Below are positions 40,906 through 47,572 of a DNA stretch of 64,000 nt, piece after piece. The stretch spans positions 186,001 through 250,000 of the forward strand of contig NZ_MNBW01000001.1 of the NCBI RefSeq assembly GCF_001879715.1, given 5' to 3'. Each line of letters opens with the position of its first letter. The stretch's first letter is position 1. The stretch comes from Nioella nitratireducens (GTDB taxonomy: Bacteria > Pseudomonadota > Alphaproteobacteria > Rhodobacterales > Rhodobacteraceae). Made by a program: the position numbers and the translations under genes. The notes beneath the pieces are model-generated. The model had not been told where the DNA came from, ran no database searches, and worked only from the letters and a program-made list of their open reading frames with translations.

Positions 40906-40982
40906 GGTCCCGTAGCTCAACTGGATAGAGCAGCTGACTTCTAATCAGCAGGTTCGGGGTTCGAGTCCTCGCGGGATCGCCA
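40906..40982 (+). tRNA. tRNA-Arg (anticodon TCT)
   Basis: Folds as a full cloverleaf of 77 nt with encoded CCA: acceptor GGTCCCG/CGGGATC (one G-U pair), D-stem GCTC/GAGC, anticodon stem CTGA/TCAG around the loop CTTCTAA (anticodon TCT), T-stem CGGGG/CCTCG with loop TTCGAGT, discriminator G. Reads AGA (and AGG by wobble). Its 3' 41 bases are repeated exactly at 41707-41747, marking the gene as an integration target. Confidence 0.97.
40942..40982 (+). repeat. attL-like site: 3' end of tRNA-Arg
   Basis: The 41 bp from TAATCAGCAGG to the CCA end are identical to 41707-41747. The block covers the 3' side of the anticodon arm, the T-arm and the acceptor 3' strand, the common core used by tyrosine-recombinase islands, which rebuild the tRNA on insertion. 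Confidence 0.85.
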
Positions 40983-41144
40983 AAACCATCATTTAGCGGC
41001 ATTGTTGCATCGCCAAACCACTTGATCTTGCGACAAAACCGGACAAAGCTCGCTCACTATTACAGTCGAACGGCAGGCCATTTGGGGCGTGTCGGCATTT
41101 TTCGATGAGTCTTTGGACCAGCGAAATAAATCAAGGATACAGTG

Positions 41145-41549
41145 ATGAAAGCCTATTTTGCCGCACTCTGCTTGGCGGTCATGCCGACAATTGCCCTTGC
41201 CGACGAGGTCTGGAATTCCAGTCTTGGTCAGATCACCTATCTTACTGACGTCGGCTCGACCGCGGTCTTCTCGGTGGGTGTTGACTTTCAAATCTACATT
41301 GATGGGCTCGGCGGGCAGTATAGTCAGAATTCCGGGACATACAGCGGGTATTGGATTGACAGTACCAACGGCGGCGCCGGCGATTGCCCCCAGACCGTCA
41401 CCGCTCCAGACGGTTGGTCATCCCGCAACTGGGGCAATGTGCAGTTGACGTTTGACCCCGACGGATTCCATCGCAGCTACACGATGCTTTTGAACTATTG
41501 CCGCGAAACCACATGGACCAGCCAGACATACGCTCAACCGCGCTACTGA
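41145..41549 (+). CDS. Small secreted protein of unknown family (island cargo)
   Basis: A 134-residue protein. Residues 1-20 (MKAYFAALCLAVMPTIALA) form a Sec signal peptide with an ALA cleavage site, so the mature form (~114 residues, starting DEVWNSS) is periplasmic or extracellular. It is rich in Gly, Ser, Thr, Tyr and Trp and predicts as all beta. Two cysteines remain (in GDCPQ and NYCRE), enough for one disulfide. GYWIDS and WGNVQLTFDPDG look like strand motifs of a small barrel or sandwich. I do not recognise the family. ATG at 41145 has AAGGA upstream; a GTG one codon earlier is possible. It is the only gene of the mini-island. Confidence 0.75.
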   Translation: MKAYFAALCLAVMPTIALADEVWNSSLGQITYLTDVGSTAVFSVGVDFQIYIDGLGGQYSQNSGTYSGYWIDSTNGGAGDCPQTVTAPDGWSSRNWGNVQLTFDPDGFHRSYTMLLNYCRETTWTSQTYAQPRY

Positions 41550-41706
41550 TGCTCGGCGGCTATCGCACCAAGTCCGTTACATCAAGGGAAGCGGCCTGAA
41601 GCCTTGGCAATGTCCGGCTGGCCCGTCCCTGTAGGGTATCCGTCTTGATCGAGGCGTATTTGGCGTCCATTCGCGGTTTTGTACCCAGTGGCTCCGAAAA
41701 GTTATG

Positions 41707-41747
41707 TAATCAGCAGGTTCGGGGTTCGAGTCCTCGCGGGATCGCCA
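41707..41747 (+). repeat. attR-like site: duplicated tRNA-Arg 3' end
   Basis: Exact 41-bp copy of 40942-40982, starting with TAATCAGCAGG and ending with the CCA bases. The sequence before it (AAAAGTTATG) has no tRNA anticodon stem 5' half, so it is not a second tRNA gene. It ends 9 bp before the stop codon of the LysR gene. Confidence 0.85.
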
Positions 41748-41756
41748 CTTCTTCCG

Positions 41757-42647
41757 TTACAGCAACGACGGCGACCCGGTGCTTCGGTCCAGAAGATCCT
41801 GAACCAACGGGTTCGGGAAGCGGCGGCGGTGCGTGACGGCGTAAAAGGTTTCCTTGATCCTCGGATGCTCCTTGGCTTCCTTGAGCCGCCCCGACATCAG
41901 CTCGTCCTTCACGACGATGGGCGCCACAAGGGCCAAACCGATATCTTCCCGCGCCAGCAGGCGCATCATCGCCATGTCATCGACCTCGGCCGCGATTTGG
42001 GGGCTTACGGACAGGCGGCTGGCCATGGCGTCGAAGGCGGTGCGCAGGCTGTTGTCCGTCGTGGGCAGGATAAACGCCTGTTCGCGCAAAAGCGCGCGGA
42101 TCGGGCGGTCGGGGTCCAACCGTTCCGGGGTGCCGACGATGCTGACCTCCTGCTCGCCGATCTGGTGCGTTTCATAGGGGGTCAGGCTGTCGTCGGGCGG
42201 TGTCCGGTTCATCAGCACCAGATCAAGATTGAGCGTGGCCAAGCCTTCCAGCAATTCGGCGGCACTGCCCGACCGCAGGATCACCTCGACATCCGTGCGC
42301 GCAAGGATCGGTCTCAGAAACCCGATCTGGAAGTTGCGTGACAGGGTTGCCAACGCCCCCACGCGCAGGGCTTTGCGGCTTTGCACCGTGCCGGTGAGCG
42401 TCGCGACCAGTTCCTGCCCGGTCGAAAAGATCGCATCCGCATGGTCCAGCGCGATGCGCCCCGCCTCGGTCAGGTGGAGCTGCCGCCCGCGCCGTTCAAA
42501 CAGCCGATGCCCCAGACGCTCTTCCAATTGCTTGATCTGAACCGACAGGGCCGATTGCGACAGGTTCAGCCGTTGCGCCGTGCGCGTCAGGTTTCCGTCA
42601 TGCGCGACGGCCCAGAAATAGCGAAGGTGATGATAGTTCAGCGGCAT
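41757..42647 (-). CDS. LysR-family regulator, divergent from dabBA
   Basis: A 296-residue LysR protein with an N-terminal winged helix (HHLRYFWAVAHDGNLTRTAQ, then SQSALSVQIKQLEERLGHRL) and a co-inducer domain. The N-terminus MPLNYHHLRYFWAVA is NhaR-like. It is divergent from dabB with 115 AT-rich bp between starts, so it is the likely regulator of the dab genes, perhaps in answer to CO2/bicarbonate or pH/Na+. The effector is not deducible from sequence. Its stop codon lies 9 bp from the attR-like tRNA repeat; without the island the gene would end beside the tRNA. Confidence 0.9.
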   Translation of the reverse strand: MPLNYHHLRYFWAVAHDGNLTRTAQRLNLSQSALSVQIKQLEERLGHRLFERRGRQLHLTEAGRIALDHADAIFSTGQELVATLTGTVQSRKALRVGALATLSRNFQIGFLRPILARTDVEVILRSGSAAELLEGLATLNLDLVLMNRTPPDDSLTPYETHQIGEQEVSIVGTPERLDPDRPIRALLREQAFILPTTDNSLRTAFDAMASRLSVSPQIAAEVDDMAMMRLLAREDIGLALVAPIVVKDELMSGRLKEAKEHPRIKETFYAVTHRRRFPNPLVQDLLDRSTGSPSLL

Positions 42648-42762
42648 GACGTTCTAATAAATCGAACCAAAACTTAAAAACAATGAATTTTTTTGCTGCC
42701 TGCTTCTGCCTTACAGCGGGACCGCGACGGTCTTCAGTCCCGAAAACCACAGGAACCCGATC

Positions 42763-44313
42763 ATGGCCTATCTACACCTTCCGTTTCTCATCCCGCTTTT
42801 GCTGCTGCTTGCGGCACTTTTTGCCGTCCGACGGCCGGGCAAGCGCCCCGGCATCGTGCCGGGACTGGCCGAGGCAGCGGCGTTTGGCGGCCTGTTGGCG
42901 GCCGTCGCCGCAACGCTGCTGCTGACCGTCAAAGGCCCCGGAACATCCGGCATGGTCGGGCTGATCGGCATTGGCCTGTCGGTGCGGCTCGACGCGGTCA
43001 GTGCGGTGATGATGGTGCTGGTCAGCTTCATCGGCTGGGTCGTGCTGCGCTATTCCAGGACCTACATGGACGGAGAGGCCCGGCAAGGCGCCTTCACCGG
43101 CTGGATGTGCGCAACGCTGGCTGCGGTCCTGCTGCTGGTGATGTCGGGCAACCTCGTCCAGCTCTTCGTGGCCTGGACGATCACCAGCCTGTCCCTAAAC
43201 CGGCTGCTGCTGTTCTATCCCGAACGAGCCACGGCGCAACGCGCGGCCCGCAAGAAGGCGCTTGTCGCGCGGTTGAGTGAAGTCAGCCTCGCGGGCGCGG
43301 TCATCCTGCTGGCGGCGGAAACCGGCACGACCGACATCCAGACCATCCTGTCCACGGCAGGCCCCGGCTGGATGACGATGCTCGCGGCGCTGCTACTGGG
43401 GGCGGCGGCCTTGATGGCCTCGGCGCAGTTCCCGGTCCATGGCTGGCTGACCGAGGTGATGGAGGCCCCGACGCCGGTCTCTGCGCTGCTCCATGCCGGG
43501 GTCATCAATGCGGGCGGGTTTCTCTTGATCCGGTTCGCGGACGTGATGCTGCTGGCGCAGGGGGTGATGGCGTTTCTGGTCATGCTCGGCGGGTTCACCG
43601 CGCTGTTCGGGGGCTTGGTGATGCTGACCCAGCCCGCGGTCAAGACCTCGCTGGCGTGGTCGACCATCGCGCAAATGGCCTTCATGATCATGCAATGCGG
43701 TCTGGCGCTGTTCCCACTGGCCTTGCTGCATATCGTGGCCCATTCCCTGTACAAGGCGCATGCCTTCCTCAGTTCGGGCGAGGCCGTGCGCAATGTCGCC
43801 GCGATCCGCCGCCCCGGCCCGATCGCGGTGCCAAGCGCGCGCAACGTCCTGCAATCCTTCACCATCGCCATCCTGATCTATGGTCTCGTCGGCGCTGTGC
43901 TGGGGTTCGAGGACAAATCGGTGCAGGCCATCGCCCTGGGTGTGATCCTGATCTTCGGCGTCGCCTACCTGCTGGCGCAGGGCTTTGCCGACGCGGCACC
44001 GCGAATGCTGACGCAGCGCACCGTCATTTACGCCCTGCTGGCGTCGGTCAGCTATTTCGCCCTGCAACTCACGGCACAGGCCCTGACCGCCGGCAGCCTG
44101 CCCCCAACCCCAGGTCCGGGGCCGCTGGAATGGGCGCTCATCCTTCTGGCGCTTGCCAGCTTCGGCCTTGTCGCGGTTGCGCAGGCGACATTCCCCTTGT
44201 GGGCCACGCACCCGGCTTCGGCGGGTCTGCGGGTTCATCTCACCAACGGCCTCTATGCAAATGCCCTCTTCGACAAGCTGCTTGACGGCTGGTCCCAGCG
44301 GTCTGACGCCTGA
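42763..44313 (+). CDS. dabB: DabB: proton-conducting membrane subunit of the DIC-accumulating complex
   Basis: A 516-residue, NuoL/MrpA-like integral membrane protein with about 14 helices. The block QFPVHGWLTEVMEAPTPVSALLHAG (quoted in two parts: QFPVHGWLTEVMEAP and TPVSALLHAG, about residues 222-247) is the conserved ion-channel signature of the complex I antiporter-like subunits. It lacks the other nuo genes and is followed 13 bp later by dabA, the arrangement of DAB operons, where DabB lets cations in to drive DabA. The start ATG has AGGAA upstream. Function is by homology to the Halothiobacillus DAB systems. Confidence 0.9.
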   Translation: MAYLHLPFLIPLLLLLAALFAVRRPGKRPGIVPGLAEAAAFGGLLAAVAATLLLTVKGPGTSGMVGLIGIGLSVRLDAVSAVMMVLVSFIGWVVLRYSRTYMDGEARQGAFTGWMCATLAAVLLLVMSGNLVQLFVAWTITSLSLNRLLLFYPERATAQRAARKKALVARLSEVSLAGAVILLAAETGTTDIQTILSTAGPGWMTMLAALLLGAAALMASAQFPVHGWLTEVMEAPTPVSALLHAGVINAGGFLLIRFADVMLLAQGVMAFLVMLGGFTALFGGLVMLTQPAVKTSLAWSTIAQMAFMIMQCGLALFPLALLHIVAHSLYKAHAFLSSGEAVRNVAAIRRPGPIAVPSARNVLQSFTIAILIYGLVGAVLGFEDKSVQAIALGVILIFGVAYLLAQGFADAAPRMLTQRTVIYALLASVSYFALQLTAQALTAGSLPPTPGPGPLEWALILLALASFGLVAVAQATFPLWATHPASAGLRVHLTNGLYANALFDKLLDGWSQRSDA

Positions 44314-44326
44314 AAGGAACGCCCCC

Positions 44327-46735
<2,409 letters not shown>

Positions 46736-47160: not shown

Positions 47161-47173
47161 TCGCCGTTTTGTC

Positions 47174-47213
47174 TGTATGGGGGGTGTACAGGGGGTGTAC
47201 GGGGGGTGCACGC
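47174..47213. repeat. GGGGGTGYAC 11-bp-period repeat element, copy 2
   Basis: 40 bp, 38 of 40 identical to 17108-17147. It sits between the convergent CDGSH and IMPACT-family genes, in a place without coding constraint, unlike the copy in the soe operon. Confidence 0.8.
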
Positions 47214-47224
47214 CCGGCGCCCCC

Positions 47225-47572
47225 CTATTTTTCACCCAGATAGACGCGGCAGGCCTCGGCCACGTGGCGAAAGCGGTCGCCCCCCAGATGCTTGCCGCCA
47301 TACCACCGTGTAACCACAATCAGATGCGATTGCAGGTCCGCGCCCTCCAACATCTTGAGGATGATATTGCCCGCACCGCTTTCTCCGTCGTCGGATTTGA
47401 GCGGCCCGTCAGGCAACAGAACGGCCCAACTGTTATGCGTGGCCTTCGCGTATTTTTTCTTCTTTTTCAGTGATTTGAGGAACTCGTCCACATCTTCCCG
47501 GCGACCGACAGGCCCACCCGAAACGGCATATTTCGACCCCCGGTCGCTGATCACGTTCTCAATCTGGCGCAT
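47225..47572 (-). CDS. IMPACT/YigZ-family (UPF0029) protein
   Basis: A 115-residue protein with the UPF0029 core: THNSWAVLLPDG, then KSDDGESGAGNIIL, and VVTRWYGGKHLGGDRF, the invariant TRxxGGxxLG block. It lacks the C-terminal DUF1949 domain of E. coli YigZ, so it is the short, core-only form. The family is linked to translation or amino acid starvation signalling in eukaryotes (IMPACT), but the bacterial role is unclear. Note the run SLKKKKKYAK. Confidence 0.85.
   Translation of the reverse strand: MRQIENVISDRGSKYAVSGGPVGRREDVDEFLKSLKKKKKYAKATHNSWAVLLPDGPLKSDDGESGAGNIILKMLEGADLQSHLIVVTRWYGGKHLGGDRFRHVAEACRVYLGEK

What the first reader, a model, noticed from the sequence alone, without database searches (positions are those of the whole stretch)
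40942..41747. 765-bp integrase-less mini-island in tRNA-Arg(TCT)
The 41 bases at the 3' end of the tRNA are repeated exactly at 41707-41747, 765 bp downstream. The second copy lacks the 5' half of the anticodon stem, so it is an attachment-site scar and not a second tRNA gene. Between the two is one gene, for a secreted protein, and no recombinase. This small size is rare for a tRNA-targeted island: it may be a decayed island or a satellite moved in trans by a recombinase elsewhere.
Basis: partly seen in the sequence, partly recalled or inferred. Interest (0 to 1): 0.75.

Follow-up and report, generated by a model that had tools for sequence, protein, structure and literature searches.

The report
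Stump of a decayed tRNA-gene island
A 724-bp stretch beside an arginine tRNA gene is most likely the worn-down remnant of a larger mobile element that once inserted itself there, keeping one small secreted-protein gene but having lost the machinery and most of the DNA signals needed to move; it is ordinary in kind, though unusually short.

Summary
The last 41 bases of tRNA-Arg(TCT) recur exactly 765 bp downstream, with one gene and no recombinase between the copies. All five congeneric genomes held have one copy only. In 395 genomes of the family, 13 other species carry a second copy of the same core. Nine of these pairs lie on one contig, 7.6-39 kb apart, so the site is a real integration hotspot. 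In 10 of the 13 a tyrosine-integrase gene lies beside the distal copy, and paired arm-type repeats are clear in most.

The 765-bp version looks like a stump, not a satellite. Its distal core lacks the four bases CTTC that all 13 comparators keep. It has no repeated arm sites. Its right end carries about 50 bp of an IS110-family insertion sequence, starting where similarity to an uninterrupted relative stops. The likeliest history: an island integrated, an IS110 element inserted, and a deletion removed the integrase side and part of the core. The remaining gene encodes a small secreted protein under purifying selection (dN/dS about 0.3), function unknown. It resembles a CIME (cis-mobilizable element), but damaged. 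The 'satellite moved in trans' reading is not supported, though not excluded.

The parts
40906..40982 (+). tRNA-Arg(TCT), intact; integration target
   Evidence: ARAGORN, Rfam RF00005 64.8 bits
40942..40982 (+). proximal copy of the 41-bp core (restored 3' half of the tRNA)
   Evidence: exact repeat
40983..41013 (.). left-end segment not shared with any comparator; only ATCATTTA matches the left end of the G003 sequence at the same offset (weak)
41014..41636 (+). cargo block, 82% identical to an uninterrupted locus in a Rhodobacteraceae MAG (JAFMHK010000024.1), not beside any tRNA in the stretch held
41145..41549 (+). gene for a 134-aa secreted protein, no Pfam/NCBIfam/PADLOC family; relatives in about 6% of family genomes; dN/dS 0.29 against its nearest relative
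41635..41681 (-). relic of the 3' end of an IS110-family transposase gene and the adjacent IS terminus; start approximate to 2 bp
   Evidence: 86% over 50 bp to G370:C5 beside an intact IS110 transposase, plus similar hits in other genera
41682..41706 (.). 25 bp of unknown origin between the IS relic and the distal core; the proposed deletion joint lies in or at the edge of this stretch
41707..41747 (+). distal copy of the core (displaced tRNA 3' fragment), lacking the CTTC that 13 of 13 comparators keep
41757..42647 (-). flank: LysR-type regulator, then dabB/dabA-like genes; not adjacent to this tRNA in relatives

Best explanation
A tyrosine-integrase island of ordinary size integrated into tRNA-Arg(TCT), restoring the tRNA and displacing its old 3' part. 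It carried, or later received, the secreted-protein block. An IS110-family element then inserted to the right of that block. One or more deletions removed most of the IS, the integrase gene with its arm sites, and the first bases of the distal core. What is left is an immobile, CIME-like stump of 724 bp with one gene still under selection. Shown: the repeat, the hotspot, the missing integrase, arm sites and CTTC, and the IS110 end at the breakpoint. Inferred: the order of events, the original size and the loss of mobility.
For: Same core used by 13 other sampled species; 9 pairs on one contig, 7.6-39 kb apart; two more pairs at 7.9 and 11.3 kb in a second sample. Integrase beside the distal copy in 10 of 13, truncated in one; two tested carry Pfam integrase and arm-binding domains. 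Paired arm repeats evident in most comparators, none in the window. Distal core lacks CTTC, kept by 13 of 13. IS110 terminus begins where similarity to the uninterrupted relative ends. Congeners single-copy. GC anomaly.
Against: No same-species strain without the insert was available, so integration is inferred from anatomy. The insert's ends do not match any of the 13 comparators, only a weak 8-bp match to G003, so the parent island is not identified. Three comparators also lack clear arm repeats in the simple test used (G418, G205, G265), so their absence is not decisive. The IS relic is only about 50 bp. A block could have been swapped in by homologous recombination after the scar formed.
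Confidence: 0.75

Rival explanations
1. A minimal non-autonomous satellite: a one-gene cassette flanked by att cores, excised and integrated in trans by an integrase encoded elsewhere.
For: Two att-like cores are present; the cargo gene is intact and under purifying selection; related integrases exist in the host.
Against: No arm-type repeats; distal core truncated in the anticodon loop; no other pair under 7 kb in the two samples; the best host match to the island integrases sits by a different tRNA 3' fragment; the cargo's nearest relative is not at a tRNA in the stretch held; the right end is an IS relic, not an element terminus.
Confidence: 0.08
2. The scar belongs to a larger composite: the LysR-dab block beyond 41757 came in as a tandem island at the same site, and 41707-41747 is an internal junction.
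For: The LysR-dab block is not next to this tRNA in relatives; tandem accretion at scars is known (PMC5704250).
Against: No third copy of the core within 3 mismatches in the whole assembly and none in the window for the 24-mer; GC of the block is normal.
Confidence: 0.12
3. No site-specific integration: the 3' half of the tRNA was duplicated or imported by homologous or illegitimate recombination together with neighbouring DNA.
For: The distal core is at least 4 bp shorter than all the comparators'; the ends match no known island.
Against: The 3' boundary is exactly the tRNA end (CCA), as in the comparators to within 0-4 bases; the tRNA is a hotspot for integrase-bearing islands; low GC marks foreign DNA.
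Confidence: 0.05

Closest known systems
tRNA-targeted genomic islands with anticodon-loop crossover (Islander class; PMC4383910)
   Same: Intact tRNA plus displaced 3' fragment in the right order and orientation; repeat begins in the anticodon loop.
   Different: No integrase and 0.77 kb; Islander rejects candidates without an integrase or shorter than 2 kb.
CIME, cis-mobilizable element (PMC5704250)
   Same: A decayed integrative element with flanking att sites but no integration or transfer genes.
   Different: The distal site is truncated and arm sites are missing, so site-specific mobility is doubtful; the parent element is not identified.
tRNA gene fragments left by mobile elements (PMC9897764)
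   Same: A partial tRNA copy produced by integration.
   Different: Here the remnant still holds one intact gene and an IS relic.
IS110-family insertion sequences (NF033542)
   Same: About 47 bp at 41635-41681 match the 3' end of the transposase gene and the terminus.
   Different: The rest of the element is gone; it is a relic inside the stump.

Membership tests
tRNA-targeted integrative island | intact tRNA and displaced 3' fragment in direct orientation | tested here: met
tRNA-targeted integrative island | integrase gene within the island | tested here: not met
   only one credible ORF, no recombinase
tRNA-targeted integrative island | same tRNA used by full elements in relatives | tested here: met
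tRNA-targeted integrative island | empty site in close relatives | tested here: inconclusive
   5 of 5 congeners single-copy, but their downstream neighbours differ from LysR
CIME | integration and transfer genes lost | tested here: met
   none present in the insert
CIME | both att sites retained | tested here: not met
   distal core lacks CTTC and no arm repeats found; 41 bp of core remains
CIME | derived from an identified parent element | tested here: not met
   ends match none of 13 comparators, only a weak 8-bp match to G003
satellite mobilised in trans | excision or transfer by a helper integrase | not testable with these tools
   needs reads or an experiment
satellite mobilised in trans | recurrence of similar-size elements at the site | tested here: not met
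   no other pair under 7 kb
IS110 family (relic) | DEDD transposase with shared terminus | tested here: met
   the matching element in G370 carries an IS110 transposase; the window holds its 3' end only

The most novel reading that the evidence does not exclude
A minimal one-gene satellite of about 765 bp that is still moved in trans at tRNA-Arg(TCT), needing only a core site.
Probability: 0.06. Interest if true: 0.6.

Novelty: new member of a known kind. Interest (0 to 1): 0.22.

Why it matters
Integrase-less stumps shorter than 2 kb are filtered out by the published island finder (PMC4383910), so they are under-counted. This one gives a readable record of how an island decays: IS insertion, loss of the integrase side, damage to the distal core, one gene kept. 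It also documents tRNA-Arg(TCT) as a recurrent integration hotspot in the family. If it were mobile it would be a remarkably small satellite, but the evidence points the other way.

Tried and rejected
Left end as an IS terminus (GGCATTGTTGCA resembled one from memory): no related copies in own genome or family. A 19-bp match to a distant gene in the host: probably chance. Shared 9-mers between window ends and island ends: judged no more than chance. Cargo in plasmids or phages: no DNA match, only weak protein relatives in cyanobacterial plasmids; none in viral contigs. PDB sequence search: nothing meaningful. Structure prediction with two sequences: mean pLDDT 43.5, unusable, so no fold search was run. 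Host as source of the IS110 end: only a 34% distant transposase.

Full report
Observation. The 41-bp repeat is real, exact and not chance. Only the first copy is a tRNA gene; the second lacks the 5' half. Between them lie 724 bp with one credible gene and no recombinase. GC is 54.3% against 65.1% for the window, the lowest of the 724-bp stretches sampled. The contig is 306 kb and the place is not near its end, and the repeat is short, so misassembly is unlikely.

Is the site a hotspot? A pattern for the core was run over 395 genomes of the family: 146 have a match, and 14 including the window's genome have two. In nine of the other 13 both copies are on one contig, 7.6 to 39 kb apart; in four they are on different contigs. 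A second sample (332 genomes of the order, overlapping the first) added pairs at 7.9 and 11.3 kb. In the 13 comparators the proximal copy is a whole tRNA and, except in G318, where it is a near-complete tRNA, the distal copy is a 3' fragment. An integrase gene lies close to the distal copy in ten, including one in two pieces (G177); in G269 only about 49 residues of its start match; in G418 and G205 none was found there by tblastn with five island integrases. Two of the integrases carry Phage_integrase, arm-binding and SAM-like domains. So this tRNA is a repeated target of tyrosine integrases.

Congeners. All five other genomes of the genus have a single copy. Their downstream neighbours differ: G001 and G004 share one arrangement, G002 and G005 each have another, and G003 carries AT-rich DNA to the contig end that may be another island.

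Stump or satellite? Three features argue for a stump. First, the exact repeat of each comparator extends at least four bases 5' of TAATC (CTTC, in the anticodon loop), in 13 of 13; in the window it extends none. Second, most comparators show paired direct repeats about 120-160 bp inside the distal copy, usually echoed some 45-75 bp inside the tRNA copy, as expected of integrase arm sites; the window's insert has none, although G418, G205 and G265 also show none by this simple test. Third, the stretch 41632-41681 matches the end of IS110-family elements in several genera, best at 86% over 50 bp in G370, where an intact transposase follows. The cargo block 41014-41636 is 82% identical to a locus in a Rhodobacteraceae MAG that continues uninterrupted. 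Similarity to that locus stops within about two bases of where the IS110 terminus starts, as if an IS had inserted there and then been mostly deleted.

Cargo. The protein has 134 residues with a Sec-type signal peptide by inspection and two cysteines, Cys81 and Cys119, that are conserved in the relatives. It has relatives in 24 of 395 family genomes, including a second, 37% identical one in the same genome, and weak ones in cyanobacterial plasmids. No family model matches; the best PHROGs hit is not significant. Against its nearest relative dN/dS is 0.29 (bootstrap 0.16-0.58), and coding identity is higher than in the flanks (88.5% against 72-75%). It is therefore probably functional; its role is unknown. 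A small beta-rich secreted or periplasmic protein is a guess from a low-confidence model.

Helper. The host has ten integrase-family matches. The one most like the island integrases (32-34% to those of G380 and G192) lies beside a different tRNA 3' fragment, ending GGTGCGCCA. No third copy of the tRNA-Arg(TCT) core exists in the assembly within 3 mismatches. Nothing positive points to mobilisation in trans.

Comparison with the literature. Islander defines islands by tRNA plus displaced fragment but rejects candidates without an integrase or under 2 kb (PMC4383910). Decayed elements that keep attL and attR are called CIMEs (PMC5704250). tRNA fragments left by integration are widespread (PMC9897764). 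The finding is thus a very small, damaged example of a known kind, with an IS110 scar as a clue to how it decayed.

Limits. One genome per species was available; divergent or shorter fragments would be missed by the pattern; the crossover point is inferred from comparators; the order of events is inferred.

Noticed in passing
L092 (G318:C1:222448): The distal copy of this island is a near-complete second tRNA-Arg(TCT), with an 80-bp exact repeat, not a 3' fragment; the element seems to carry a whole tRNA.
   Followed up: no
L094 (G269:C10:155204-162825): A 7.6-kb island at the same tRNA with only about 49 residues of integrase left and a large adenine-methyltransferase-like gene: a second case of integrase loss at this site.
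   Followed up: partly
window 47162-47231: A GC-rich stretch (TGTATGGGGGGTGTACAGGGGGTGTACGGGGGG) with many 84-98% matches across this genome and its congeners: a dispersed intergenic repeat.
   Followed up: no
L111 (G000:C8): A host integrase of the same broad family sits beside a 3' fragment of another tRNA (ending TTCGAATCCTATCGGGTGCGCCA), suggesting a separate integrated element near the contig end.
   Followed up: partly
L090 (G380), L093 (G192), L094 (G269): Islands at this tRNA in different genera carry similar-looking unnamed genes: one of about 270-280 aa next to the integrase side (no Pfam match for the two tested) and one of about 400-500 aa: a possible undescribed element family.
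   Followed up: partly
window 41757-46735: LysR, NDH-subunit-like and DUF2309-like genes (possible DAB inorganic-carbon system, named from memory) abut the scar but lie elsewhere in relatives.
   Followed up: partly
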